Assembly (NCBI GenBank): GCA_002887195.1
Contig: PJAB01000923.1
Span: 1 to 19,051 of the forward strand
Length of the DNA: 19,051 nucleotides
Reading direction: 5' to 3'
From: Chrysochromulina parva
Taxonomy: Eukaryota; Haptophyta; Prymnesiales; Chrysochromulinaceae
The translations under genes and the position numbers were made by a program. Below are positions 1 through 16,873 of the stretch, piece by piece. Numbering within the stretch: the stretch's first letter is position 1; each line of letters starts with the position of its first letter. The notes below the pieces were generated by a model, which was not told the DNA's origin, did not search any database, and saw only the letters and a program-made list of their open reading frames with translations.

Positions 1-504
1 GAGGCAGCGGCCAAGGCGGAGGCAGCGGCCAAGGCGGAGGCAGCGGCCAAGGCGGAGGCAGCGGCCGAGGCGGAGGCAGCGGCCAAGGCGGAGGCAGCGG
101 CCAAGGCGGAGGCAGCGGCCGAGGCGGAGGCAGCGGCCGAGGCGGAGGCAGCGGCCAAGGTGGAGGCAGCGGCCAAGGCGGAGGCAGCGGCCAAGGCGGA
201 GGCAGCGGCCAAGGTGGAGGCAGCGGCCAAGGTGGAGGCAGCGGCCAAGGCGGAGGCAGCGGCCAAGGTGGAGGCAGCGGCCAAGGTGGAGGCAGCGGCC
301 AAGGTGGAGGCAGCGGCCAAGGTGGAGGCAGCGGCCAAGGCGGAGGCAGCGGCCAAGGCGGAGGCAGCGGCAAAGGCGGAGGCAGCGGCCAAGGCGGAGG
401 CAGCGGCAAAGGCGGAGGCAGCGGTCGAGGCGGAGGCAGCGGCCAAGGCGGAGGCAGCGGCCAAGGTGGAGGCAGCGGCCAAGGCGGAGGCAGCGGTCGA
501 GGCG
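1..504 (+). repeat. 18-bp minisatellite, 28 in-frame units
   Basis: Exactly 28 head-to-tail copies of an 18-bp unit (gaggcagcggccaaggcg consensus) run from base 1 to 504 and probably continue to the left. Variation is almost only single-base: Lys/Glu (aag/gag) and Ala/Val (gcc/gtc, gcg/gtg), plus a silent gcc/gca change. Because the unit is six codons, copy-number change keeps the frame. The repeat encodes E-A-A-A-K-x hexads with i,i+4 Glu-Lys spacing. Confidence 0.97.
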
Positions 505-2019
505 GAGGGCGAGCAGATGATGAAGGCTCTGAATGCCTTCCGTGACGATCTCTCGGACGACGATGAAAGCGAGGAAGGCGACGAAGACGAGGAGGAGGGG
601 GATGGTGAGGTCGAGGTGGGCGAGGGTCAGCAGATGTTCACGGAGGAGGACGAGGCGGATGAGAAGGGGGCAGGGAAGGAGCTCAACGGTGAGCTCTACG
701 AGGAGCTCGGCGGTGAGCTCGACGAGGAGCTCGACGAGGAGGTGGAGGAGGTCGACGACGAGGTCGAGGTGATGGAGGCTGCAGATCCCCCCGCCGTGGA
801 GCAGGATGCTTCGGCGGTGTCTGCGACGGCCATGGCTTCCGAGGCGGCGCTGCTCCGATCTCCCGAGCTCCGATCTCCCGAGCTCCGATCTCCCGAGCTC
901 CGATCTACCGAGCTCCGATCTACCGAGCTCCGATCTACCGAGCTCCGATCTCCCGCAGCGGCGCCACTCCACCCCGATGACGAAGCCCTTCTCCGTAAAT
1001 TCCTCACGCGGAGTGAACCCGGAGATCGGACCTCAGGAGATCGGAGCTCGGGAGATCGGAGTGAACCCGCGCCGGTGCCGGCCGCCGCGCTGAGCGAAGC
1101 TGCTGCCGAAGAAGCGCTGGCGCCCGACATGGCGCCCGAGGCACCAGCGGCGGCGTTTCTGCTTGCGCCCCCAGGTCGGATGAGCGTGCTGGAGGCGGCG
1201 GCGGCGGCCCTGGGGCTGACAGCGGCGGAGGCGGCGGCATTGAGCCCCGAGGAGCTCGCCCTCTTCGAGGCCGCTGGCGTCGGAGCGGCCGAGCCTGTGG
1301 CCGCCGACCATCGTCATCCAGCTGATGACCATCGTCATCCAGCCCCCAGACGCCATCCAGACGGGGACGTGGGCGCCCCTGTGGCCATCGAGCTGCAGCC
1401 TGAGGTCGCGATGCTGTACATGCGACAATTGCTCTCGCTCGGCGTGGTGCGCACGCTCGAGGTTGGCCCCGACGGTCAGACTGCTGCACACGCCGATACC
1501 CTCCAAGTGCCCATAGATAATTTCCTGCTCCTCGAGACATCGAGTGATGGGCAGCCGACGCCATGGGGGCAGACGGAGGGCGTGCAGATCGCGCACAAGC
1601 TGCTGCTCGACCTGCTCAACGCGGCGCTCCGTCACGAGACAGCCAAGTGGCATCGCACACGCCAGCTGCGCGTGGGCGCGGTGGAGGCGCTGCCCTTGGG
1701 CGGATGGCGCAGCCTGCCCGAGGGTGCGGCGCTGCAACGGCTTGTCGAGGGTGCCTGCCGGTTGGCGGGCAATTGGCTCGCGCAGGCACACCAGGCGGAG
1801 GGACTGCCAGTCGAGGTGCTCCTCTCGTGCCTACTCGTGACCGACACTTCCGAAATCGAGCGCTGTTGGCTCGAGCAGTCGAAGCACAAGGAGGACGTGA
1901 TCGCCGAAACTTCGGAGCGCGTCCTCGGCACGCTCCTCGCCGAGCTCGACCAGGAAATTGAGGCCGGTTGGCCGCGGACGCAGCAGCAGGCGCGCCGTCG
2001 CGGGCACTTTGCGCAGTGA
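1..2019 (+). CDS. EAAAK-repeat protein with DUF4378-like C-terminus (5' partial)
   Basis: The frame is open from base 1 with no ATG before the repeat, so the gene starts left of the window; 672 codons plus a TGA stop are visible. Domains in order: residues 1-168 are 28 hexads EAAAKA/V or EAA(A/V)EA, expected to form a long charged single alpha-helix; about 180-255 is strongly acidic; about 285-317 is an ELRSP/ELRST repeat; about 360-430 is Ala/Glu-rich; about 461-672 looks globular. In the last part, LYMRQLL, NFLLLE, LLLDLLNAAL (near 534) and W623 followed by a KHKEDV...LLAELDQEI helix occur in the order expected of DUF4378, the C-terminal domain of plant TRM/LONGIFOLIA proteins that bind the TON1-PP2A cortical microtubule complex. 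That assignment is from remembered pattern and is tentative. A cytoskeletal or scaffold role would fit. The coding call is firmer than the family call. Confidence 0.72.
   Translation, partial: EAAAKAEAAAKAEAAAKAEAAAEAEAAAKAEAAAKAEAAAEAEAAAEAEAAAKVEAAAKAEAAAKAEAAAKVEAAAKVEAAAKAEAAAKVEAAAKVEAAAKVEAAAKVEAAAKAEAAAKAEAAAKAEAAAKAEAAAKAEAAVEAEAAAKAEAAAKVEAAAKAEAAVEAEGEQMMKALNAFRDDLSDDDESEEGDEDEEEGDGEVEVGEGQQMFTEEDEADEKGAGKELNGELYEELGGELDEELDEEVEEVDDEVEVMEAADPPAVEQDASAVSATAMASEAALLRSPELRSPELRSPELRSTELRSTELRSTELRSPAAAPLHPDDEALLRKFLTRSEPGDRTSGDRSSGDRSEPAPVPAAALSEAAAEEALAPDMAPEAPAAAFLLAPPGRMSVLEAAAAALGLTAAEAAALSPEELALFEAAGVGAAEPVAADHRHPADDHRHPAPRRHPDGDVGAPVAIELQPEVAMLYMRQLLSLGVVRTLEVGPDGQTAAHADTLQVPIDNFLLLETSSDGQPTPWGQTEGVQIAHKLLLDLLNAALRHETAKWHRTRQLRVGAVEALPLGGWRSLPEGAALQRLVEGACRLAGNWLAQAHQAEGLPVEVLLSCLLVTDTSEIERCWLEQSKHKEDVIAETSERVLGTLLAELDQEIEAGWPRTQQQARRRGHFAQ
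853..957 (+). repeat. 15-bp tandem repeat coding (L)RSPE / (L)RSTE
   Basis: Six complete 15-bp units (ctccgatctcccgag, the later three with tac for ccc) plus a partial seventh. The unit is five codons and encodes L-R-S-P/T-E. Units 1-3 share one variant and units 4-6 another, which suggests block duplication. Confidence 0.95.
868..1061. repeat. Inverted copy of the 15-bp repeat: potential long hairpin
   Basis: Bases 1036-1061 (26 nt, beginning ggagatcggagctcgg) are the exact reverse complement of 868-893 within the tandem array. A further partial inverted unit lies at 1021-1030. In the protein the inverted copies read GDRSSGDRS. A 13-bp direct repeat, cggagtgaacccg, flanks the inverted block (about 1009-1021 and 1057-1069), as if a segment had been inverted or templated during repair. 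Confidence 0.85.
1306..1343 (+). repeat. 21-bp in-frame duplication (DHRHPAD)
   Basis: The 17-bp string gaccatcgtcatccagc occurs at 1306-1322 and again at 1327-1343, a 21-bp period that adds seven codons (DHRHPAD) to a His/Pro-rich linker just before the C-terminal domain of the first gene. Confidence 0.85.
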
Positions 2020-2228: not shown

Positions 2229-5200
2229 ATGCGAGGCTCGACAGCGCCCAGACGCGGCGCTATTGGGCAGGCAGCTGCCAAGGCTGGCGGTCGCTCGCCC
2301 GTGTCGTCGGCCCGAACAACTGCGCCGTCCGGCCTTGCGCTCGGCATCGACGGCATCGGGGCTAAGCATCGGGGCTCAAGCCCGCACAAGAGCGGCAAGG
2401 ACAGCACTCGCAAGGAGAGCGGGCGCAGCGTCTCCTCGCCCTCGGCGACGCGTGGCAGCTCGTGCAGCAGCAGCCGCAGCAGCCTCAGCAGCCGCGTCGG
2501 CAGCGGCAAGAGCTTCGACGCACCAGGCACCTCGGCCGCATCGTCGCCACAGATCGGCTCGTTGGTGTCAGCGCCGGCGCTCGTGGAGCAGGTCAGCCTG
2601 GGCTCGTCGCCGTCCGCGCTCTCTCTGGTCGCCTCCGCGAGCTACTCGATCAGCTCCGCGCGGGACACCTATTTGGAGCCGGTCGCTACGGTACCGCTGC
2701 TTGGGCTACTGCAGGCGGCGCCGCTCGTGCACGGGACACCACCGATGGCGGTCGACATGCTCGACCTGAAGCAGGAGCGCGACTGCATCCTCGCATCGCT
2801 CACGCGTGCCGGCCGACAGCTCAGGGTGACCTCCGACTTTTGCACCACGAAACGGCTTCGCCAGCTCCTCACGGACGGTTGCCGTATGCTGCACTACTCA
2901 GGTACAGATTGCCTCTCTGAGTGGGTCTGAGTGGGTCTGATTGGATTGCGTCTGATGGCATCTGATGGCATCTAATGGCTCCACTCCTCAGGTCACGGCT
3001 TCACCTACCTCGATCGGAACGGCCAGCCTAAGGAGCGTCTCGCCTTCGAGGATGGTCAGGGCGGCACACATGCCATCGAGGTGGACCGTCTGACGAACCT
3101 CGTTCAGGCGGGCAACGAGGAGGGCGCTGGGAAGCCGCCGCTCGACTTCGTCTTCATCTCGGCCTGCCACTCAGACCAAGCGGGCGAGGCCTTCGTCGCG
3201 GCGCAGGTACCGCACGTGGTCTGTGTGCGCCGCGAGGCACAGCTGCAAGACAAGGCGGCGTGTGCCTTCGCCGACCAGTTCTATTTTGCGCTCTTCCGCG
3301 GCAAGACCGTCCAGTCCGCCTTCGACATTGCCAAGCAGGCGGTGTCCAACGACCCGTCGATCCTGCGCGCCGATGCGGAATCCGACAAGTTCCTGCTGCT
3401 GCCGCTGCACGGAGAGCACGGGGTGAGCCTGTGCCGTGACGTGCCCGACGGGCCGTACCTCGACTGCTCGCCACCGCCCGCGCTGTGCAACCTGCCCGCC
3501 TTCTTCCCTCTCCAGTTCATTGGGCGGCAGGCGGAGTGGCAGCAGCTCGTCCAGGCAGCCGTTGGGCAAGAGAAGCGCCTACTGACCCTCGTCGGCACCA
3601 CTGGTATGGGGAAGACGTCGCTCGCGCTCGCGACGGCGCACTACTTGTTCGAGAGAGCTTGCTTCCCTGGCGGCGTCTTTTATGTGCATGCGGAGGGTGC
3701 GGCGCATCCCCATGAGTTGTGCGCGATGATCCGAGACGCCATCGCCGAGGCGCGTGCCGGCTTTGCCGAGGAAGAGGGCTATGCCGAAGATGCGGACGAG
3801 GGTGGCGCGCCGGGCGCGCCTCCCTCGATGGCCGAGGCGGCGGCGGCCGCGGCCGGGCAGGCCGCCGCCGCCGCTGCGCTTCCCGTCACGCTGCGTCGAC
3901 TGGGGAGGTGCTTGGTGGTCGTGGACGGCGTTGTGCTCGCTGAGAGGCACGCAGACCCAACGCCGCGCCTCAACGGTGGTGGCGGGGGTGGTGGCGGTGG
4001 CGGTAGCGGTAGCGGCGGCGGCGGCGGCGGCGGCACGCCGGCGAGCGGAGGGCTGAGCGCGCTGCTGCAGGCCCTCCTTCAAAAGGCTCCGGAGCTGCGC
4101 CTCTTCTTGACCTCCACGGAGCCTGTCGCGCTCCCTGGCGTCGCCACACGTCAGCTCGTGCTCGCACCGATGCCTTCGCGAGAGGCGGCGACGCTCTTCC
4201 GCAGGCTGGCACCGCGTGCCATCTCGCGCGACGAGCTCAGCTGCGATGATCCAGCCATGTTGCGCAAGGAGCTGCAGCGTCTCGTTGTCGAGCTCGCCGG
4301 CAAGATCGACATCTCCGACTTCCAGCTATTAGCGGCGGGCCCACAGCCGAACCAGCCGCTCAAGGTGCACTGGCGGCTGCCGAGCCTACACGCGGCCGCC
4401 GCGCTGCAGCGCGAGCTCACGGCCCACAATACGCTGCTGCAGCTCGACTTGCCGCCTGTGTCGACGAGCGGTGTGGCCGGGCTCGTCGGGTACCTCTCTT
4501 TACCGAGGATGCTCGCGCAGCATGCCGCGCTGCATCAGCTCAAGGGGAACCCGAAGGCCATCTCGCTCGCTGTCTCGCTGCTGCAGCCGGACGCGTGCAC
4601 GGTGCGCCCGCTCGGCGAGCTCGGTGAGCTCCTCGGCCACTGCCAGCACCATCCCACCGGCGCCCACGGGCAGACGAGCCTGCCGCCTCCCGACACAGCG
4701 CTCCACGACGTGTCGGATGCCGACCGCTCGGTGCTCGAGCAGCTGACTTCGCTCCTTGCGCCGCCGGAGGCGGCCTCGCCCTCGCGCGACCACTCGCGCG
4801 CCTCGCCGCCGCCGGCCGACCGGTCGAGCTCGATTTCGTCCGAGTCGGACATGGGCGGCTTTGGACGTGATGCGGGGCCGACCGCGCTCGCTGGCGAGCT
4901 CAGCCGTCAGAAGCTGCCCTCGAGCCTCGTGCTGCGTAAGCAGGAGTACCTCGCGATGATGGAGGGCAACCCGCGCTGGCTGGGTTCGGGCTCGCTCGGC
5001 GCCGTGTATGACGTCGACCTGGGCGGTACGCGGGTGGCCGTCAAACAGTTCTTCGAGTCGAGTTGCTCCTCGTCCGCCTTCCAGCGCGAGGCTCTCCTCC
5101 TCGCCGAGCTGCGCCACCCGAACATCGTGCAGCTCATCAAGGTCGCATGCCAGCCCAAGCTGTGCATCGTCACTGAGCTACTCGTGTGCTCGCTGCACGC

Positions 5201-5771
5201 GCTGCTCCACCATCATGCGGGCGGGCCGCTCCGTCAACTGCTACTCGCCACGACGACGTCCACCCTCACCATGTGTATGCACGTGGCGCGCGGCATGAAC
5301 TACCTGCACACGCTCGAACCGCCCGTGCTCCACCGCAACCTCAAGTCGCAGAATCTCCTGGTCGACGAGGGAGGCAAGGTCAAGATTGCGGACTTTGGGT
5401 GGTCACGCCTCAAGACCTTCGACGCGGGAAAGACCTTCTTCCATGGCTGGCAGTGGGTGGCACCCGAGATCCTCTGGGGGCAGCCCTTCACCGAGGCGGC
5501 GGACGTCTACTCGTTCGGCATGGTCTCATGGGAGGTGCTCACGCAAGAGATCCCCTTCAAGGGTCTCAACCCGGTGCAGATCGGTGTGGCAGTACGCGAG
5601 CAGAAGCGCCGGCCGCCGTTGCCCGAGCACGGGCCGCATGGGCTCGATCAGCTGCTCCAGGCCTGCTGGCACGACCAGCCCGAGCAACGGCCCTCCTTTG
5701 TCAAGGTGCTCGGCAAGGTGCAGGCACTCGTTGCCATCGCCTCGACCGAGAGCGGTCCCGATGAATTCTGA
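2229..5771 (+). CDS. CHAT protease - NB-ARC NTPase - TKL (pseudo)kinase fusion
   Basis: Spliced from 2229-2901 and 2992-5771 into 1150 residues. ATG 2229 is the first in-frame ATG after a stop at 2157. Residues 1-150 are Ser-rich. CHAT (caspase/separase-fold protease) spans about 160-365: LDLKQERDCI, HYSGHG with catalytic His226, and FISACHS with Cys283. NB-ARC/STAND NTPase spans about 400-790: FIGRQAE, Walker A GTTGMGKTS (Lys432), a weak Walker B LVVVDGV, sensor-like FLTSTE, and an ARC-type GNPKAISLA; a poly-Gly run interrupts it. A Ser-rich linker follows. The TKL-like kinase spans about 880-1140: LGSGSLGAV loop, VAVK (Lys909), HRNLKSQN with Asn1007 replacing the catalytic Asp, DFG (Asp1025), VAPEIL. 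CHAT next to STAND modules is known from bacterial and fungal defence or cell-death proteins; the role here is inferred. The kinase is likely impaired but may bind ATP. Confidence 0.9.
2902..2991 (+). other. 90-nt GT-AG intron in the CHAT active-site codon
   Basis: Donor ctcag|gtacag and acceptor ctcctcag|gtcacg. Splicing joins g and gt into Gly225 and gives the CHAT motif HYSGHG; unspliced reading gives HYSG then TDCLSEWV and a stop at 2928-2930. The intron holds two short tandem repeats (gagtgggtct and tctgatggca) and a tctaat element 18-20 nt before the acceptor that may serve as branch point. Confidence 0.93.
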
Positions 5772-6593: not shown

Positions 6594-8624
6594 CTAGGGT
6601 GCAAGCGAGGCGTTTTTGATCTCGAGCACGGTGAGCCGGCGGAGGTTCTCCATGTCCCCCTGGGTGAAGGAGAGCACCGCGTCGCGAGCGAGCCAGTCGG
6701 CCGTGCGGCTCATGAAGATCCCGCAGTCCCAGCCGTTGCACTGCTGGGGCGTTTGCCCCTGCTTCCAGACGACCTCCGTCCACCCCGACGTGTCGAAGGG
6801 CACCTTCTTCTTGTCGAGTGACTCGTCCTCTAGCCAGCGACGTAGGTTCGTCAGCACCATGTTCGGCGAACCGCGCAGCGAGTCGTAGTACTCGAAGCGT
6901 TTCTGCTTCATGTTGATCACCGCGAGAGTCCAATGGTTGCCGTTGCAATGGATGGGAACGATGATCAGGTCCTTGCTAAACACGTCCTTCTTACGAGTCC
7001 ATCTGGCCACCTCACTGTACTTGTAGCCAGCGGGCGTCTCGGCGAGCTTGGTGTAGAAGTTCGTCTGGTGGAAGTGGCAGCGCGGCCACGTGGCTTCGAC
7101 CGCGCTCGCCTCGCGCTGCTCGAGAAGCTTAAAGAAGTAGTTGATCACCTCGTCGTTGAGCCACTGGCGAGGTCGGAGCGTTGCCATGTCCCTTCGTGAG
7201 ATCGGGATGTTCTGGAAGTCGGCGAGAATCTCGTTGGGGTTGCCGGTCCCAAGCGCCTCATCCACGATCTCCGCCTCCTCCGCCGTCAGGGTCGGCAGCG
7301 TGTACGCCCGCTTGCCGGGAGGCATCACCACCGGCGGCTTGAGACGCTCGTGGCCCGCCAGGCGCTCGAGCACCTTGAGCACCGCCTCGGCCTCCGCATG
7401 CAAGTGATCGATCGCCGCATGCACCGCCTGGAGCGCACCGGGCAGGCTCGAGCACATGGCGAGCAGCGTGGCGATCTGCGCCGCCTTGGCAGGCCTCTCT
7501 GCGTCAGCCATGTGCTGCGCCTCCGTGTCGGCGGGATCCCACAGCAAGTTGAATATGCTTCGGGCGCGAGTGCTCGCGAGGTCTGCCAACGCGCAGGCGT
7601 CCTTGGAGGTGCGCTTGAGCTCCGAGGCGAGCACTCGCGCACGCTCGGTCAGCCTGGCGTGGCTTGCCTCATAGTCGTCCATCGGAGCCATCGGGGCGGC
7701 GAGCACGGTGGTGAGCGCGGTGGCCTGCTCGTGCAGCTCCGCCGCCTCGGCAGCGCCTCTGGCGCGAGTCTCCTCGAAGCCGCACAACTTCTCCTCGAAG
7801 TGAAACATCTCTTCGTCCTTCGCAGCGATTTGAGCTGCCATGGCGTCTGCCGAGATCTCCGCAGCGAGCACACCATAGTCAAGCCCGGGGTCGTGTGGGG
7901 CAGGAGACCCACGAAATATGAACGCGTCCACGGCGGCTGCGACCTCCTTGGCACGCGCTACGTACTGAACGAGAGCCTGCCGCTTCTGCTCCGCCGCCTG
8001 CTCCTCTTGCTGGCGGCGCTGGTGCATCCGTGCCTCCTCCGCGCGCGCGTGGTCGCGGAGGAGGTTGATGCTCGCCATCTCCCGATCGAGCTTGATGCTC
8101 GCCATCACCCGATCACTAAATTTGGCCCGGGGCTCGAGGGACCGCTGCGATAGCGAACTTTGAAGCTGCGGCCGCGGCGCGGCTGCAGTTGAAGGCGCTG
8201 GCGCAGCAGCGGGTGCAGCAGCGGACGTAGCAGCGGGCGCAGGAGCAAACGCGGCTGTCCATGGCACGGACAGAGCGGCCGGCCAGACAAACCCTGGCAC
8301 CGGAGCAGCAGCAGCGGTCGCACGTGGCGGCGACGGCGGCAATGTCGCGAGCCCAGCGGCCTCACGATTGTCCTGCTGCGAAGCGGCCACGTAGCCACAC
8401 GAACGCGGCGTGAGCTGCGGAAACAGCCGGCCACGCAAAGCCGAACCCTGCTGGGGTAGTGCTGCCGGGATGTTGATGCGGCGTTGCGAGCTAGGCTCGT
8501 GGGTGCACCGGCGCTTGGTGTCGGCCTGCTCGAGGCAGTCGAGCACGTCGACACGCCGCTTGCGTGCGCCAAAGCAGAGCGGAGCGAAGGTGTGATGGAT
8601 CGAAGGTGCGATCATGGCCAACAT
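6594..8624 (-). CDS. Ulp1/SENP-type SUMO-specific cysteine protease (peptidase C48)
   Basis: 676 residues from ATG 8624 (a second ATG sits three codons on, at 8615). Without spliced upstream exons, 8624 is the first ATG. The C-terminal protease domain (about 455-676) has the family's substrate-groove motif LRPRQWLNDEVIN (Trp488) and a complete active site: His564 (GNHWTLAV), Asp581 (YYDSLRG), Gln628 and Cys634 (QCNGWDCGIF). The 17-residue His-Asp spacing and Gln six before Cys match Ulp1. Such enzymes mature SUMO precursors and remove SUMO from proteins, usually in the nucleus or at the nuclear pore. The N-terminal half has a basic KRR segment, a long Ala/Pro-rich stretch (about 95-165) and a charged coiled coil (about 180-250), none of which I recognise as a known domain; these may set localisation. 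The next gene upstream on this strand is HSP70, 632 nt away. Confidence 0.94.
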   Translation of the reverse strand: MLAMIAPSIHHTFAPLCFGARKRRVDVLDCLEQADTKRRCTHEPSSQRRINIPAALPQQGSALRGRLFPQLTPRSCGYVAASQQDNREAAGLATLPPSPPRATAAAAPVPGFVWPAALSVPWTAAFAPAPAATSAAAPAAAPAPSTAAAPRPQLQSSLSQRSLEPRAKFSDRVMASIKLDREMASINLLRDHARAEEARMHQRRQQEEQAAEQKRQALVQYVARAKEVAAAVDAFIFRGSPAPHDPGLDYGVLAAEISADAMAAQIAAKDEEMFHFEEKLCGFEETRARGAAEAAELHEQATALTTVLAAPMAPMDDYEASHARLTERARVLASELKRTSKDACALADLASTRARSIFNLLWDPADTEAQHMADAERPAKAAQIATLLAMCSSLPGALQAVHAAIDHLHAEAEAVLKVLERLAGHERLKPPVVMPPGKRAYTLPTLTAEEAEIVDEALGTGNPNEILADFQNIPISRRDMATLRPRQWLNDEVINYFFKLLEQREASAVEATWPRCHFHQTNFYTKLAETPAGYKYSEVARWTRKKDVFSKDLIIVPIHCNGNHWTLAVINMKQKRFEYYDSLRGSPNMVLTNLRRWLEDESLDKKKVPFDTSGWTEVVWKQGQTPQQCNGWDCGIFMSRTADWLARDAVLSFTQGDMENLRRLTVLEIKNASLAP
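8065..8118 (-). repeat. 27-bp tandem duplication in the SUMO protease coiled coil
   Basis: Units 8065-8091 and 8092-8118 share 21 of their first 22 bases (ttgatgctcgccatc then t/a then cccgatc). On the coding strand they give two adjacent MASI(K/N)L nonapeptides at the start of the predicted coiled coil. Confidence 0.85.
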
Positions 8625-9256
8625 GATCGCGGTTCGCGGCGCGAAAGACAGGGCTGTCCGAGGCTTGCGCAGACACAGGGAACATTTGCTGAGAACTACG
8701 CAAGTTTGGTTCACAGCAAATGTTAGCCTGTCGAGGCCAAAGGCCCGTGCGCCGTACACCCCCGAGCGCGCGTGGAGTATCCTTTGTTTTGCTCAGGTTT
8801 TCGTTCGTTGCGGCGCGACGTGTCGGCGGCGCGGTGTCGTACGGGCGTGGGGCGAGTTCGGAGTTGGGGTCGGTGCACATGGACAAACAAATGCCAAGCT
8901 TGATGCCAAGAATGTCAATGCGGCGTGTGTGCTGGGCCTAGGAGCTAAATCTCTAACAAGACGTGAATGTTCTTCATGTATAATTCATTACGTTATTCGG
9001 TATTCGCGACGCGACCGCGCGGCTCCGCCGGCGGCGCACACATACGATACGACAAAAATGAAAAAACTCGTACCGCTTCTGGGCTGGGCGCACATTCGCA
9101 TCACTGACGAGAGCTCCCCCGAATCTATCTCTTGCGACACTCGCACGATGCTCTCCAGAACCTCATCCGAACCAAGCTCGCACATGCACCCGCGCAGAGT
9201 CCTCAACGGCACCGCCTGATCGGCATTCATCATGAATCGCGCGCTCTCGCCGCCGT
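8625..9256. other. Intergenic region: SUMO protease promoter side and HSP70 3' side
   Basis: This 632-nt gap lies between two minus-strand genes. It should contain the HSP70 3' UTR (high coordinates) and the protease promoter and 5' UTR (low coordinates). An A/T-richer patch lies at about 8945-9005. A minus-strand frame 8988-9233 starting ATG-ATG could be a small ORF or an unlinked 5' exon of the protease gene; nothing in it identifies a family. Confidence 0.5.
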
Positions 9257-10975
9257 CTACTTCTTGTCGCCCTCCTTCTTCACATCCTCATAGTCAGCCT
9301 TCTTCTCGCCGCCGCCCTCGCCGCCACCCTCGCCGCCGCTCGCCTGCGCTGTCTTGTACACGGCCTCGCCGATCTTCATCGACGACTTCTTGAGAGCCTC
9401 CACCTTCTCTTTGAGGGCGTCAGCCGAGACTGCATCGTCGGCCATCGCCTCCTTGACAGCCGCAATGTCCGCCTGCACCGCGACACGGACACGGGCACGC
9501 ACTCGCACACGGCTAGTGAGCGGCTGCACAGGGCGCTTAGGGAGAGGCTGTCGCGCCGTGTTGGGCTGTCGCGCCGGGCGCACGCACGCCGCGCGTAGGC
9601 GCGCGTGGCGGAGCTCGCGACGCCGGCTGAGCGAGAGCGTGCACTCCGTATCCTGACACAGTGCTTGGCCTCATGGCGTCGCCTCTCGGAGACAAGAAAT
9701 ATGCGTTCAATCGTCCTTGTGCACGCCCAGTCGCGGCTGCCGCGGCGGCGGCGGCGGCGGCGGGCAGTGGCCGCGGGCTCCCAAGGCAGGGGTGAGGCTC
9801 GCTCGCGCACCTTGATGGCGTCTTGGTCCGCCTGTGGCACCTTATCCTTGTGCTCCATCAGAGTCTTCTCGGTGTTGTAGATCGTCGAGTCCGCCTCGTT
9901 CTTCGACTCGACCTTGGCCTTGCGGTCACGGTCCGCGGCGGCAAACTGCTCCGCCTCGCGCACCATCCGGTCAATGTCCTTGTCGGAGAGACCACCCGAC
10001 GACTGGATGCGGATCTGCTGCTGCTTGCCCGAGGCCTTGTCCTTGGCGGACACGTTGACGATGCCGTTCGCGTCGATGTCGAAGGTCACCTCGATTTGGG
10101 GCATGCCGCGCGGCGCGGGCGGGATCCCCACAAGATCAAACTGGCCTAGCATCTTGTTGTCGGAGGCCATCTCACGCTCACCCTGCAGTACCTTGATGCC
10201 CACCTGCATCTGGTTGTCGGCGGCGGTCGAGAAGGTCTGCGACTTTTTGGTCGGGATGGTCGTGTTGCGCGAGATGAGCTTCGTCATCACGCCGCCGAGG
10301 GTCTCGATGCCGAGCGACAGGGGTGTAACGTCGAGAAGCAAAATGTCCTTGACGTCGCCGCGCAGAACGCCACCCTGGATGGCCGCGCCGAGCGCGACGA
10401 CCTCGTCGGGATTGACGCCCTTGAAGGGCTCCTTGCCGAAAAAGGCGTTCACCGTCGACTGCACCTTCGGCATGCGAGTCATGCCGCCCACGAGGATGAC
10501 TTCCTCGATGTCCTTCGTCGACAGGGCGGCGTCGCGCAAGCAGTTCTTACACGGGTCGACGGTGCGCTCTATCAGGTGGCCGGTGAGCTCCTCGAGCTTG
10601 GCGCGAGAGAGCTTGACGTTCAGGTGCTTCGGCCCCGTCGCGTCGGCCGTGATGAACGGGAGATTGATCTCTGTCTGGCCTGTCGACGACAGCTCGCACT
10701 TGGCCTTCTCGGCCGCCTCGCGCAGGCGCTGCACGGCGAGCTTGTCCTTCGACAGGTCGATCGACTGCTCCTTCTTAAACTGGTCCTTGAGCCAGTTGAG
10801 CAGCACGATGTCGAAGTCCTCGCCGCCGAGCAGCGTGTCGCCATTGGTCGCCTTCACTTCGAAGACGCCGCCGGAGATTTCAAGGATCGACACGTCAAAG
10901 GTGCCGCCACCGAGGTCGTACACGGCCACCACCTTGCCGTCCTTCTTGTCGAGGCCGTACGCGAGCGCGGCGGCG

Positions 10976-11010
<35 letters not shown>

Positions 11011-11601
11011 CGCGATCTTGCCAGCGTCCTTGGTTGCCTGCCGCTGCGAGTCGTTGAAGTATGCGGGCACCGTCACCACGGCGTGCGCCACAGGACGGCC
11101 AAGGTAGGCCTCCGCCGTCTCCTTCATCTTGCCGAGCACGAAGGCGCCCGCCTGCGACGGCGAATACTGCTGCCCGTTCACCTCCACCCACGCGTCGCCG
11201 CCGGGGCTGCGCACGATGCTGTACGGGCACGCGGCAAGGTCCTTTTGGATGTAGCTGTCCTCAAAGCGCCGCCCGATCAGGCGCTTGGTCGCGAAGAGCG
11301 TCCCTTTCGGATTCGTGACTGCTTGGCGCTTGGCGGGCGTGCCCACGAGGCGTGTGCCGTCGTCCATGAAGGCGATGATCGACGGCGTCGTGCGCTGGCC
11401 CTCAGCATTTTCGATCACCTTCGCAGTGCCGCCCTCCATGATCGCGACGCACGAGTTGGTCGTCCCCAGATCGATGCCGATCACGTCGCCGATGGGGCCG
11501 GAGGCCATCGATCGCGAGAGGGGCTGCTGCAGAGCGGCGGCGCGTGCGCCGGCGAACCGGCCCAAGCGGGCCGCTGGTCGTGCGACCAGCTTCGCGAGCA
11601 T
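9257..11601 (-). CDS. HSPA9: Mitochondrial HSP70 chaperone (SSC1/HSPA9 type)
   Basis: Spliced from 11601-9811 and 9472-9257 into 668 residues, normal for the family. ATG 11601 begins an Arg/Ala/Leu-rich presequence without acidic residues (about 1-33), a typical mitochondrial transit peptide. The nucleotide-binding domain has [10 protein letters not shown] (41-50), [10 protein letters not shown] (229-238) and [10 protein letters not shown] (371-380). The linker DVTPLSLG (424-431) is followed by the substrate-binding domain and a helical lid ending in a [13 protein letters not shown] tail with ADYEDVKK. There is no cytosolic EEVD end. It is an ATP-driven chaperone of the matrix and the motor for protein import, working with J-proteins and a GrpE-type exchange factor. 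The late intron separates the last 71 residues, so the long exon alone reads into a basic nonsense tail. It is divergently paired with the sulfotransferase-like gene. Confidence 0.98.
9473..9810 (-). other. 338-nt GT-AG intron in the HSP70 lid region
   Basis: On the minus strand the donor is atcaag|gtgcgc (exon ends at 9811) and the acceptor is cggtgcag|gcggac (exon resumes at 9472). Splicing joins DAIK to [10 protein letters not shown] in phase 0 and restores the conserved HSP70 C-terminal helices. The intron contains a (CCG/CGG) run near 9738-9763. Confidence 0.93.
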
Positions 11602-11970
11602 CTTGATCGTCCCGAAGACGCAGAAATGTCCTTGCCACGTCGCTGTACGGGCGTCGCGTCTCTTCACAGTGCTCGGTTGGGCTCTGATAGGGATGTGACA
11701 GTGTTACGAACACGACCAATGCCTCAGGATTGACACATGTTGTCGCGAAGATGTGACGCAACGCGACACTCGCGACAACAGGTGCTTCGGCACTGTTATT
11801 ACTGCTTTACTGCCCAGAATTTACTGTAACACACACCTTACTGACTCCATTCGGAGGCGCGGAGCATGCGCGAGCTCGCGGCAGTGAGGATGGTTTGGGC
11901 GTCTTGACTACATGTACCAAAAATGGTTACCCCATTCACAATGAGAAAAGAGGGGCTGGGTCCAATCTAA
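11602..11970. promoter_or_regulatory. Divergent promoter region, HSP70 (-) / sulfotransferase-like (+)
   Basis: These 369 nt lie between two divergent start codons and must hold both 5' UTRs and core promoters, unless distant noncoding exons exist. CCAAT occurs at 11716-11720 and 11962-11966. I found no convincing TATA box and no clear array of nGAAn heat-shock elements. Confidence 0.65.
11738..11780. repeat. 11-bp perfect inverted repeat in the divergent promoter
   Basis: tgttgtcgcga (11738-11748) and tcgcgacaaca (11770-11780) are exact reverse complements around a 21-nt spacer that itself contains a further gcgacac. It is either a dimeric transcription-factor site or a stem-loop in the HSP70 5' leader. 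Confidence 0.7.
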
Positions 11971-12763
11971 ATGCGGCCAGAGGAAGCGGTGGCGCTGCTG
12001 GCGTTGCTGTGTGGAGGCGCGCTGCTCGCGCTGCTGTTTGGTGGCTCGTCCGATGAGGAGCCTCCACCGCTGCTGCCGCCGCTGGATGAGCGGGACGTTG
12101 ACACCTACACGAGCGAGGCGGCGCTCCTGCGCCATCTGACGTGCCCGCAGCTCGCTCAGCTGCAGCTGCGCTGGCTGCCCAACGCACCTGCACGAGCGAC
12201 GCCGACACTTGGTGGCGCGCCACTAATACCGTTCTTGCTGTTGCACGAGTTGCACGTGGGCGAGGCGTGGCTCGTGCGCATGCTACGTGCATTGGGAGCA
12301 CACGTCGAGGTTGCGCAGGAGACGGGCGCAGAGGCGCACAAGCACGTCCGCGAGTCGGCACACAGGTGGCTCGAGTCGATCACAAAACCCGCTCGGCGTG
12401 GGCGTGCGCCGAATGCCACGCTCGCCGGAGCAGCCGCGGTCGGTCTCGCCATCTCGCCGCAGGCGCTGCGTACGCTCAACCACGGCATCCGAATGCCCAG
12501 CGGCAGCGGCCGAACGGGCTTGGCGCTGCCTTTGCGGCTGATCACGCTCACGCGGCGCAATCGGCTCAAGCATGCCGTCTCGTGCCATGCGCGGCAGCTG
12601 CACCGTCATCGCGGCGGCCTGCGTCTCGGCGACGCCGGCGCGCTGACGATGCCCATCGACGAGTTGACTAAACTCATCGAAGCAGGAGTGAGCGCACACG
12701 CCGCGCTTGAGTGCAGCGCGCGGGAGGTGGTCGGGCGGCTGGCTGCGGCTGCCGCGAGCAGCA

Positions 12764-12817
<54 letters not shown>

Positions 12818-14388
12818 GCAACAGCAACAGCAGCAGCAACAGCAGCAGTCAGCTCGGCGTGCGCAAGAACGCCTCGATTGGCCACTACGTGCCTTCGCTA
12901 GATGCTGTCGTAAGTTCAGAGCCTCGGCTGGCACTTCATTACGAGGATCTTCTGTATGACACTGCACGCACTCTCGCGAGGATGCGCGCGTTCCTCGGCC
13001 TGCACGTGCCGAGCAGCGGCGGCGCCGTGCCTGGTGCCCTGCCGCTGCCACCAGTAGCGAAGCGAGCGCCGAACTCGCTCTGCGTACGCTTGAGGAATTG
13101 GCCGGCTCTGTGCGAGGCCGTCCAAGGCACTGTGTGGGCTGCCGATCTGCAGCGCACCACCTCGGCGGCAGCGGAGGATGCAGCAGGCGGCGGCGGCGGT
13201 GCTGGCGGCAGCGTGTTGGGCGCCGTGATGGACACACGCCGTCGCGGCGCGGCATGGCGCGCTGAAGTTCCGAGCGGCGCGTGCGCTTTGTGTGAGGTGG
13301 GCCAAGCGGGGCTGGTGCTGGGCGGCTCGCACCACAAGACGGGCACCGTGCTGCTCGAGCGGCTGCTTGCCATGTATGCGGCCAAGAGCCGCGTGCACTT
13401 CTACAAGCCTTCGTGGGAGCAGTGCCCGGCGCTCGCTCGGCGCGAGGCGGGCGTGTGCGTGGATGAACACTTGGCGTTACCCAAGCTCCGTCGCTATTGG
13501 GATGATCCGCAGGGCGCACCCACGGCGCTCCTTGCGCCGCTGGTGCATATCGTGCGCGAGCCGCTCGAGACGTGCATCTCGGCGTACCAGTACCACTTGG
13601 TATCGACGGAGGCGTGGCTGCGTACCCCACGGCCAGAGGACTTGGTGCGACGAGGTCCCACGGCGGGCCTGCCTTGGCAGGCAGTGCTGCGACAGGCGGA
13701 CACGCGTACCGGGCTCCGCCTTGAGTGCCGGCGCTCCATTCACGACCAGATCGTGCAGCAGGCGGAGGTGTTCAACGCGACGCGCCGGCACGTGCGCGTC
13801 TTCACACTTCGGATGGAAGCGACCGAACGTGACTTCGACGGCAGCACGCATGCGCTCTTCCGGTTCCTCACGGTAGCGCATGAGCGCTGGCTGGACACTC
13901 GCAGGTCGCCGAGTAGCAGCGAGAATCGCAGTGCTGGCGGCGGCGGTCGTGGCGGCAGCATTGTCCATGGGGCTCGGCTGGGAGGCAGCTCTCGGCAGGA
14001 CGAGGAGCGTATCGAGGCCCTTACCAAGGACGCATCCAAGTTTGACCTGTCGCGCCATCGGCGCGAGCTCGATGATGGGCACCTGAGCGCAGTGCAGCGC
14101 AAGCGCTTGCTGCGGGGGATGCTCCTGAATGAGTCCAAACTGGCCGCCGAGCTCGCGCACTGGCGTGTGGCCGCCGGGTACGACCACAGCTACCGTGTGC
14201 ACTGCGAGCGCTATGGGCTGAGCTACTTTGAAGAGGCGCTCGCCGACGGCATTCGTGTTGGACCCTCGCTCTGGGATGTCGCGAGGCGACGCCGACGGAG
14301 CAGGCGACGCTTAAAGGAACACTCCCCTGCCCGAAACCAACTCCCATGGAAACCCCACGACAAAACTCAAAAAACTCAAAAACTCTAA
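11971..14388 (+). CDS. Tandem sulfotransferase-like type II membrane protein
   Basis: 805 residues from ATG 11971. Residues 6-24 form a hydrophobic N-terminal segment (ALLALLCGGALLALLF) after one Arg, which suggests a Golgi signal anchor. There are two sulfotransferase-like halves. The N-terminal half (about 84-345) has a degenerate 5'-phosphosulfate segment (LIPFLLLHELHVGEAW), a good 3'-phosphate-type segment LTRRNRLKHAVS (193-204), then LALHYEDLLYD and FLGL. The C-terminal half (about 446-760) has GSHHKTGT (452-459, the PAPS 5'-phosphosulfate loop), HIVREPLETCISAYQYH (526-542, the 3'-phosphate element) and a conserved-looking C-terminal AAGYDHSYRV region. A 16-Gly run and an NSS-rich stretch (potential N-glycosylation) separate motifs in the first half. 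By family, it would move sulfate from PAPS to a carbohydrate or other acceptor in the Golgi; the acceptor is unknown. The first half may be inactive. The last ~35 residues are basic and low complexity. Confidence 0.75.
12766..12813 (+). repeat. (GGC)16 run encoding poly-Gly
   Basis: Sixteen consecutive ggc codons inside the sulfotransferase-like gene, flanked by agc/aac codons giving a Ser/Asn-rich spacer. It is a likely length-polymorphic site and an assembly risk. Confidence 0.95.
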
Positions 14389-14728
14389 AACGCTCTCGAC
14401 TACGGCGTCTCGCTGCAAGGCACCACCTTTCAAAAACGCCATAGCGATAGCCGCATACAGTCTAGAGTAGGATGGGCGGACGACATGTTACCCTTTCCGC
14501 AGTGAACCTACTAGTAGACGTCTGCACACTGCAGAGTCGACAGTCGAGCTCTCGAGCATAGGGTGACGAGATACCCCGGGAGCAGCCCCTCCTTTCTCAT
14601 TGTGAGGGGTTCCCACGCCGTGCGTGCAAGCAAGCAAGCAAAGCTTGCTTGCCGTGCGTGAGGAGGCGGGCTCCCATGCGGGCGTCTTCTGTGGGAAAAA
14701 GGGGAGGCGGTCCGAGAGAGCGCCCCGG
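14389..14728. other. Intergenic region with small stem-loops
   Basis: This lies between tandem plus-strand genes. It holds a CCCCTC/GAGGGG short inverted repeat (about 14586-14609), then a strong hairpin at 14630-14652. The frame of the next gene is open back through part of this region but has no ATG before 14729, so I treat it as 5' UTR and promoter. Confidence 0.5.
14617..14660. repeat. Perfect hairpin flanked by 10-bp direct repeats
   Basis: gcaagcaagc (14630-14639), loop aaa, gcttgcttgc (14643-14652): a 10-bp perfect stem with a 3-nt loop. gccgtgcgtg occurs on both sides (14617-14626 and 14651-14660). It sits about 80-110 nt before the ArfGAP start codon and could be a 5'-UTR structure or a footprint of a small insertion. 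Confidence 0.75.
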
Positions 14729-16873
14729 ATGAGCAAGGAGGCTTTTTGCTCGTGGAGAGGGATGACTGCTTCCGCCTCCGAGGGAGGCTTTTTGCTCGTC
14801 AAGAAGGCGAGCAAGGTACCAGGAACAGGCACTTCGTCCTGGAAGCGGCGATATTTTTGGATCAAAGGCAGCACACTCTACTATCGAAAGAAGGCCCAGT
14901 CCGGCGACAACGACGTGCGTGAGATCAACCTGCTCATCTGCACCGTCAAGCCAGTGCTCAGGCGCGCGGCCGATAATCTCGAAGCCGACGCAAAGGGTCG
15001 CTTCTGCTTCGACCTCATCTCACCATACCGCACGCTTACGCTTGCCACGGAGAGCGAAGCCGACATCGCTTTTTGGGTCGCGGCCATACGCTCGTCCATC
15101 GAGGCCACTGTCTACGGGCTGGGCGACCGACCCGGATCGAGCGTGCCTGCTGGGCGGCCTGGCGCGCCCGATGCTGCTGCGGTCGATGCCGGCGCGCCCC
15201 AGGACGGCGGCGGCAAGGCGGCAGCGCTCAGCATACTGAGGAACGTCTCAGCGAAAGCGGGCAACGATGTGTGCGCCGACTGCGGCGATGCGAGCACAAG
15301 CCCGGACTGGGCGGTGCTGCCCTATGGCACGCTCGTGTGCATCCAGTGCTCGGGAATCCACCGCTCACTTGGCGTTCATATCTCCAAGGTGCGCTCGATC
15401 TCGTTGGACACGTGGACCGTCGAGATGGCAGGCACCCTCGCCGCCATTGGCAATCGCGAGGCCAACGAGCTCCTCGCGGCGCGTGCGCCGCTGCCAAGCC
15501 TCACAGTGCCCATGGCCTCGTCTGCGCACGCTGTCAAGGAGGCATGGATTCGCGCCAAGTATGAACAGCGTGCATGCATCGAGCGCCCCGTACCAGCCGA
15601 GCAGCTCCCTACCGCCCTCGCCGCCGCGGCTGCGACCAACGAGGCCCTGCCGCTGCTCGCCCTGCTCCTCCAACTCGCCCCATCAACGGCGGCGCTGGAC
15701 GCGAAGCCAGCACCCCGTAGCGCCGCCCCTCTGACCGCCGACGGACTCGCACCAATGGTCGCACCAATGGTCGTCGTCGGCAACGCCGACGCCGACGCCG
15801 CCGACGCCGCTGCTGCCGTCATCGACGTCGCCGCCGCCGCCTACGCCGACGCCGCCGCTGACGCCCTTGCGACGCCCACAACCGCAGCGGAGAAGCAGGC
15901 CAAAGCAAGTGGCGCGTCGTACAGCTCAGACGCGGAGCCCGCAGCGGAGCTACCCATCTGGCCGAGGAGATCGAGGGAGATCGGCGAGGGCGGCGCAGCG
16001 ACACACGTTGCCGCCCAGAACGACGCGTCGATCTCCCTTGAGCTGCTCCTCCTTGCCGGCGCTTCCCTCGAGCTGCCCGGCCCCAGCGGGCGCACGCCGT
16101 GCCATGTGGCCTGCGCCGCGGGCGCTGAGCTGTGCGTGGCGCTGCTACTGAAGCGCAACGCGGACTGCACCGCCGCAGATGCGAACGGCGACACGCCGCT
16201 CACCCTCGCGCGCGCGTCGGGTCATGCAAGCTGCGAGGTACTCCTGCTCCGGGCCATCGAGGAGAGGGAACGCGCCGCAGCCTCGCGCGTGAACCTTCGA
16301 GGACTGACGAGCTCAGATGACGAACCAGTCACGCCGGTGTCGAGCCGAAACTCCTTCGGCGGCATGGTGCGCTCGTCAACTTCGTCAACTTACAAGCGCT
16401 CCGTTCACACCGGCGGCGGCGGCGGCGTGTCCAGCAGCTTCAGCCGAGCCATGCACCGCCGCACCAAATCAGCTGCGCCGAGCTATCGTCCGGGGCGCGC
16501 CAGCGGCATCGAAACACTCGGACCCATCCCGACAAAAGCAGCCGCCACGTCCCAGCTGGCCGACGCAGCGACCACCGGAAGCGCCGCCACGAGCGTCGCC
16601 ACGAGCGCCGCGGGCACCCCCGTCGCCACGCGTCTCGAGCGCGTGCTCTCGGGCAAAGAACTCTCGAGCGATGGCGACGAGGGCGCAGCCGAGGGCGCAG
16701 CCGAGGGCGCAGCTGAGGGCGCAGCCGAGTCCACAGCGAGGACCCCACAGGCTAGCGATTTGCCGCCGCCGCCCTCGCCCGCGAGCCGGCGCTCGTCGAT
16801 GAGCGTACGGCGGCTGTTCGGGGGGCTGTCGGCTGGCCGCCGCACTCATCGGCGCTCGCTAAGCGGCGCCTGA
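14729..16873 (+). CDS. PH - ArfGAP - ankyrin protein (ACAP/AGD type)
   Basis: 714 residues from ATG 14729; ATG 14762 is an alternative that still precedes the PH domain. PH domain about 19-125: GGFLLVKK, WKRRYFWIKGSTLYYRKK and the closing Trp helix (FWVAAI). ArfGAP domain about 170-290: zinc finger Cys182, Cys185, Cys204, Cys207, followed by GIHRSLGVHISKVRS with Arg212 in the arginine-finger position. The second zinc-finger loop is 18 residues, about two more than usual, inserted before the conserved Trp. After an Ala/Asp-rich low-complexity insert, two to three ankyrin repeats lie at about 420-520 (GRTPCHVACAAG, GDTPLTLARASGH). The tail is Ser/Ala-rich with EGAA repeats and a basic end. Such proteins stimulate GTP hydrolysis on Arf at membranes carrying phosphoinositides, controlling vesicle traffic. 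The order matches animal ACAP and plant AGD1-4, but the N-terminal BAR domain of those is absent unless it lies in unseen exons. Confidence 0.93.
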   Translation: MSKEAFCSWRGMTASASEGGFLLVKKASKVPGTGTSSWKRRYFWIKGSTLYYRKKAQSGDNDVREINLLICTVKPVLRRAADNLEADAKGRFCFDLISPYRTLTLATESEADIAFWVAAIRSSIEATVYGLGDRPGSSVPAGRPGAPDAAAVDAGAPQDGGGKAAALSILRNVSAKAGNDVCADCGDASTSPDWAVLPYGTLVCIQCSGIHRSLGVHISKVRSISLDTWTVEMAGTLAAIGNREANELLAARAPLPSLTVPMASSAHAVKEAWIRAKYEQRACIERPVPAEQLPTALAAAAATNEALPLLALLLQLAPSTAALDAKPAPRSAAPLTADGLAPMVAPMVVVGNADADAADAAAAVIDVAAAAYADAAADALATPTTAAEKQAKASGASYSSDAEPAAELPIWPRRSREIGEGGAATHVAAQNDASISLELLLLAGASLELPGPSGRTPCHVACAAGAELCVALLLKRNADCTAADANGDTPLTLARASGHASCEVLLLRAIEERERAAASRVNLRGLTSSDDEPVTPVSSRNSFGGMVRSSTSSTYKRSVHTGGGGGVSSSFSRAMHRRTKSAAPSYRPGRASGIETLGPIPTKAAATSQLADAATTGSAATSVATSAAGTPVATRLERVLSGKELSSDGDEGAAEGAAEGAAEGAAESTARTPQASDLPPPPSPASRRSSMSVRRLFGGLSAGRRTHRRSLSGA
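14737..14799 (+). repeat. 17-bp direct repeat in two reading frames
   Basis: ggaggctttttgctcgt occurs at 14737-14753 and 14783-14799, offset 46 bp, so the second copy is in another frame. Copy 1 reads EAFCS; copy 2 reads GGFLLV and begins the PH domain. Confidence 0.85.
16679..16726 (+). repeat. 12-bp tandem repeat encoding EGAA x4
   Basis: Four copies of gagggcgcagcc (one with a silent gct) in the C-terminal tail of the ArfGAP protein. Confidence 0.95.

What the first reader, a model, noticed from the sequence alone, without database searches (positions are those of the whole stretch)
2229..5771. CHAT protease, STAND NTPase and kinase in one algal protein
Seen: CHAT His226/Cys283 motifs, a Walker A plus ARC-like GxP motif, and a full TKL kinase fold in one spliced frame. 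Known: CHAT effectors are joined to STAND NTPases in bacterial defence and fungal cell-death proteins, and NLR-type switches pair an effector with a sensor. Inference: here the C-terminal sensor slot is filled by a kinase-like domain, giving a possible receptor in which kinase-domain perturbation releases NTPase oligomerisation and CHAT proteolysis. I do not recall a described protein with this exact order.
Basis: partly seen in the sequence, partly recalled or inferred. Interest (0 to 1): 0.9.

Follow-up and report, generated by a model that had tools for sequence, protein, structure and literature searches.

The report
Caspase-like protease, NLR switch, dead kinase
One gene of a likely haptophyte alga encodes, in a single predicted protein, a caspase-like (CHAT) protease module, an ATP-switch module predicted to fold like those of NLR immune receptors, and a kinase module whose catalytic aspartate is replaced; it is likely an intracellular receptor whose dead kinase would act as the sensor that releases the protease.

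The parts
2229..2901 (+). exon 1: Ser-rich N-terminus (aa 1-155) and first part of CHAT
   Evidence: N-terminal MRG also in P0004 and P0006
2902..2991 (+). intron, 90 nt, GT..AG, in-frame TGA
   Evidence: the splice gives HYSGHGF, which relatives carry uninterrupted
2992..5771 (+). exon 2: rest of CHAT, STAND, linker, kinase, stop; lies in one 931-codon open frame 2976-5771
2694..3416 (+). CHAT protease domain, aa 156-366 (intron inside); His226 codon 2994-2996, Cys283 codon 3165-3167
3504..4613 (+). STAND NTPase, aa 396-765; Walker A 3594-3617, Walker B Asp536 3924-3926, GxP motif 4545-4565
4254..4511 (+). about 86-residue insert (roughly aa 646-731) in the STAND module of this clade
   Evidence: matches of P0078, P0079 and P0085 skip about profile positions 204/215 to 296/302; strands and helices there in the P0004 model
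4614..4931 (+). low-complexity linker aa 766-871; of 9 relatives only the near-identical P0001 matched
   Evidence: P0004 model low pLDDT at 708-751
4977..5711 (+). TKL pseudokinase domain, aa 887-1131
5331..5339 (+). HRN (aa 1005-1007) in place of HRD; Asn1007 codon 5337-5339
5436..5474 (+). family-specific activation-loop end FFHGWQWVAPEIL (aa 1040-1052)

Best explanation
The gene encodes a three-part predicted protein, CHAT cysteine protease, STAND NTPase and C-terminal TKL pseudokinase (Asn for the catalytic Asp), that is likely an NLR-like intracellular receptor in which the pseudokinase would be the sensor and the CHAT protease the effector. Inferred working: at rest the pseudokinase, tied by a flexible linker to the end of the STAND module, would hold it in the ADP-bound form; a change in the pseudokinase (binding of a pathogen protein aimed at host kinases, phosphorylation by an upstream kinase, or loss of bound nucleotide) would allow ATP exchange and ring assembly; CHAT domains brought together would become active and cut a still unknown substrate, probably starting cell death or defence. 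Shown: the domain order, intact CHAT dyad and Walker motifs, and family-wide loss of the kinase catalytic base. Predicted: the folds. Not shown: RNA, nucleotide binding, assembly, proteolysis, trigger, substrate.
Confidence: 0.6

Rival explanations
1. The kinase domain is the output and still signals (weak kinase or allosteric activator of a partner kinase, as pseudokinases of the HER3 kind do by recall); CHAT trims or releases it.
For: ATP-site residues, alpha-C Glu and DFG kept; TKL/MAP3K kin; a low-confidence, variable linker suited to cleavage.
Against: Catalytic Asp lost in 7 of 7 readable family rows and activation-loop end remade; in STAND proteins the C-terminal slot is normally the sensor (recalled).
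Confidence: 0.2
2. Non-immune regulator: a CHAT-STAND-pseudokinase used in development, stress or cell-cycle signalling, not pathogen sensing.
For: Kinase well conserved (63% to P0005, 66% to P0007); ordinary neighbours.
Against: At least 9 CHAT domains in the genome (8 matches plus the window's), with a CHAT/NB-ARC/LRR locus; CHAT proteases of fungi control gasdermin cell death (PMC10197012 passages).
Confidence: 0.25
3. Artefact: neighbouring genes joined by the gene model.
For: CHAT His and Cys sit in different exons' reach (the junction precedes His226); no transcript seen.
Against: A 931-codon frame holds His226, Cys283, NTPase and kinase; P0005 has all in 1002 residues on a contig of 3257 bases, leaving at most about 250 bases for introns; same order across a supported clade.
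Confidence: 0.03

Closest known systems
Fungal NLRs with CHAT protease effectors (and protease to kinase-like fusions)
   Same: CHAT as effector part of an NLR; the review also says such protease domains can be fused to predicted kinase-like domains (PMC12881547, passages; PMC10197012, passages)
   Different: Fungal ones are described with gasdermin clusters and WD40/TPR/ANK repeats; here no repeat sensor, a HRN pseudokinase instead, and no gasdermin match by PF04598
Plant NLRs with integrated kinase domains (such as RPG5) and Pkn-NLRs
   Same: NLR switch joined to a kinase domain; kinases are among the commonest integrated domains (PMC9528084, passages; PMC11218826, passages)
   Different: Plant ones have LRRs and, as far as I recall, no CHAT protease
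CHAT-STAND-SH2 proteins (Ectocarpus P0094, P0095 and unnamed ones)
   Same: Homologous CHAT-STAND core and a C-terminal phospho-signalling module; FLxR-type motif in 9 of 10 candidates looked at
   Different: SH2, not kinase; the CHAT tree places them outside the kinase clade
CTR1 kinase domain, PDB 3p86 (D676N mutant)
   Same: Best sequence match in PDB, E 1.8e-51, with the same HRN (mutant named)
   Different: There Asn is an engineered change; here it is natural and found in 7 of 7 readable family rows
SAVED-CHAT filament protease 8tl0
   Same: Closest solved fold to the CHAT domain of P0004
   Different: Prokaryotic cyclic-nucleotide defence effector (recalled), no STAND or kinase

Membership tests
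CHAT peptidases | Pfam CHAT above curated cut-off | tested here: met
   29.9 vs 24 bits
CHAT peptidases | caspase-like fold with His/Cys dyad | tested here: met
CHAT peptidases | proteolytic activity | not testable with these tools
   bench only
STAND / NLR-type NTPases | Walker A, Walker B, GxP motif | tested here: met
STAND / NLR-type NTPases | Pfam STAND-type model above cut-off | tested here: inconclusive
   below cut-off in window, above in P0005: AAA_16 33.5/32.6, nSTAND1 30.4/27.1, NACHT 28.9/26.7
STAND / NLR-type NTPases | Apaf-1/CED-4/NLR fold of the nucleotide-binding module | tested here: met
STAND / NLR-type NTPases | C-terminal repeat sensor (LRR, WD40, TPR) | tested here: not met
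   no repeat family in the window protein at E<=1; hence 'NLR-like', not a canonical NLR
STAND / NLR-type NTPases | ligand-induced oligomerisation | not testable with these tools
   bench only
TKL kinases | kinase fold and TKL kinship | tested here: met
TKL kinases | catalytic HRD Asp | tested here: not met
   Asn in window and in 7 of 7 readable family rows
Fungal-type CHAT-gasdermin system | gasdermin partner nearby or in genome | tested here: inconclusive
   no PF04598 match in own genome, model sensitivity doubtful; none among the six neighbouring frames scanned

The most novel reading that the evidence does not exclude
Haptophytes and stramenopiles share a class of caspase-armed NLR-like receptors that watch the cell's kinase signalling: the C-terminal sensor of the CHAT-STAND core is a phosphotyrosine-reading SH2 domain in brown algae and kin and, in this haptophyte clade, a dead TKL kinase that serves as built-in bait for pathogen (perhaps giant-virus) proteins that attack host kinases, with CHAT as the death effector.
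Probability: 0.3. Interest if true: 0.85.

Novelty: new variant of a known kind. Interest (0 to 1): 0.66.

Why it matters
Intracellular immunity of bloom-forming microalgae is poorly described (recalled). A conserved protein that carries effector, switch and probable sensor in one chain gives a directly testable candidate receptor, and with the SH2 relatives suggests that NLR-like switches outside plants, animals and fungi may read kinase signalling. It would also be a pseudokinase sensor on a caspase-type effector, separate from MLKL and from plant kinase-NLR fusions.

Tried and rejected
Sequence search of the CHAT-STAND part against PDB gave mostly Gly-rich chance matches, best E 0.0025, so structure comparison was used. 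First model, P0005 with 9 rows, was poor (mean pLDDT 64.2) and its fold list was filled by kinases; a 32-row alignment with P0004 first gave good CHAT and STAND parts. In the Foldseek list of that model the rows after SAVED-CHAT are mostly AAA+ proteins at rmsd near 20 over long alignments and were not used. PADLOC matches of the kinase-bearing proteins are mostly to kinase models, with a few weak P-loop ones (5 proteins scanned). Scans of viral contigs and of prokaryote genomes with the profile found no encoded relative (24 and 69 pattern matches, none confirmed; two patterns each, so only close kin are excluded). SH2 in own genome: nothing, but the controls were silent too. One clade for the SH2 rows is neither shown nor rejected (p 0.368, 9 rows against 26; P0091 fell out of the tree as too short; some long branches, root weak). 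The lineage name 'haptophyte' rests only on the nearest named relative, Prymnesium parvum. Considered and dropped: gene-model artefact; ordinary active TKL kinase; bacterial defence system.

Full report
WHAT IS THERE. The window is a whole 19,051-base contig of a 45-Mb, 2199-contig assembly. The gene runs 2229-2901 and 2992-5771; the intron is 90 nt with GT..AG ends and holds a stop in frame. The product has 1150 residues. Pfam finds CHAT at 118-347 (29.9 bits, cut-off 24), AAA_16 at 399-538 and NACHT at 421-630 (both below cut-off) and PK_Tyr_Ser-Thr at 887-1131 (1e-48). Exon 2 lies in a single 931-codon open frame that already holds His226, Cys283, the NTPase and the kinase, so the fusion does not depend on the splice.

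IT IS CONSERVED. A search with residues 150-780 gave 8 proteins, among them P0001 (99% identical, the same gene or nearly so) and a partial P. parvum protein, P0006. A search with the kinase part of P0005 gave 65, and a profile search 39 (all three capped to the candidates sharing most words). By Pfam, P0005, P0004 and P0026 carry CHAT, a STAND-type P-loop domain and kinase in that order; in P0004 only the kinase N-lobe is present, in P0026 the STAND match is below cut-off and the kinase is broken by what looks like an unspliced intron. P0006 shows CHAT and, just below cut-off, AAA_16; its kinase start (52 aa, E 5.7e-08) comes from BLAST with the window kinase. P0007, P0029 and P0077 hold STAND ends plus kinase. 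In a tree of 35 CHAT rows (rows with at least 95 filled columns; P0091 fell out) the 15 rows of this clade group with support 100/99. Of 9 relatives only P0001 matched the linker between STAND and kinase.

THE KINASE IS A PSEUDOKINASE BY SEQUENCE. The catalytic loop reads HRNLKSQN. I aligned 8 family proteins (window, P0001, P0004, P0005, P0007, P0026, P0029, P0077) and the other 59... proteins P0009-P0069 to a family profile; Asn stands at the base position in 7 of 7 readable family rows (window and P0001 are near duplicates), and 92 readable non-family domain rows have 86 Asp, 3 Asn, 2 Glu and 1 Arg. The best PDB sequence match is CTR1 D676N, with the same HRN. The family also shares F-F/Y-HGWQWVAPEIL, present in 5 of 9 family proteins (window, P0001, P0005, P0007, P0029); P0004, P0006 and P0077 end before it and P0026 is broken there. 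Most other rows have G-T/S-x-x-W there. Glycine loop and Lys stand in 9 of 9, the alpha-C Glu in 8 of 9 (P0006 ends), DFG in the 6 that reach it. ATP binding is therefore plausible, phosphotransfer unlikely; neither was measured.

SETTING. The profile search also reached CHAT-STAND proteins of stramenopiles and probably of bacteria. I scanned 29 of its 39 hits with Pfam. SH2 lies C-terminal to the STAND part above cut-off in 7 (P0082-P0084, P0089, P0093-P0095; only P0094 and P0095, Ectocarpus, are named); P0085 and P0091 (Phytophthora) score below cut-off and P0080 has a sub-threshold Cbl SH2-like match. The FLxR-S-E type motif is present in 9 of these 10, not in P0085. Others: SAM-CHAT-STAND-TPR in Aphanomyces (P0086), FHA before CHAT in Albugo (P0088), LRR before CHAT in P0087, EAD7-CHAT-STAND-TPR in P0079 and P0081. 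Thus the C-terminal slot varies, and phospho-signalling modules recur in it. The window's genome has 8 further CHAT matches (the window's own was not among them), including C210 with CHAT and NB-ARC in one frame and LRRs in an overlapping downstream frame, and C894 with a kinase frame ahead of a CHAT frame (that each is one gene is inferred). No gasdermin by PF04598 (weak control).

MECHANISM. The anatomy is that of an NLR: effector, switch, sensor. The kinase is unlikely to be the enzyme, is joined by a variable linker, and sits where repeats or SH2 sit in kin. I therefore read it as the sensor. Trigger, assembly, CHAT activation and substrate are inferences.

KNOWN OR NEW. Passages read: fungal NLRs with CHAT, gasdermin clusters, and protease domains fused to predicted kinase-like domains (PMC12881547; PMC10197012); PKinase listed among domains of fungal NLRs (PMC4986451); kinases as common integrated domains and RPG5 (PMC9528084); N-terminal kinase NLRs (PMC11218826). 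Searches for CHAT with haptophytes, with SH2, with STAND and NLR, with gasdermin and kinase-like domains, with pseudokinase decoys, and for NLRs of haptophytes or P. parvum listed no title or abstract on this architecture (open-licence library; listings cut, for example 12 of 589 and 10 of 16). Hence a new variant of a known kind.

Noticed in passing
P0080, residues about 97-477: CHAT domain is interrupted just after the His motif by a stretch that looks like an intein (Cys start, TRVLT; recalled motif); CHAT matches split at 19-96 and 478-605.
   Followed up: no
own genome C649:9995-19309, minus strand: 3105-codon frame with CHAT-STAND followed by a second, degenerate CHAT (no His motif, CARQ for ACHS) and a second STAND.
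   Followed up: partly
own genome C210:9648-12969 (L021): CHAT and NB-ARC in one frame, LRRs in an overlapping downstream frame: a likely classical NLR with a CHAT effector.
   Followed up: partly
own genome C894:16037-18076 (L023): Kinase frame (HTD for HRD, DYD for DFG, read by eye) before a CHAT frame: a possible second kinase/CHAT pairing in reverse order.
   Followed up: partly
P0082-P0084, P0089, P0093-P0095: CHAT-STAND-SH2 proteins (Ectocarpus named) with the phosphotyrosine-binding Arg motif.
   Followed up: partly
window 4254-4511: Insert in the STAND module of this clade, modelled with strands and helices in P0004 but unidentified.
   Followed up: no
window 1-520: The frame 1-2019 opens with a tandem EAAAKA-type repeat.
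   Followed up: no
window 6594-16873: Neighbours: Ulp1/C48 peptidase (-), Hsp70 (-, perhaps mitochondrial), weak sulfotransferase match (+), PH-ArfGAP-ankyrin (+).
   Followed up: no
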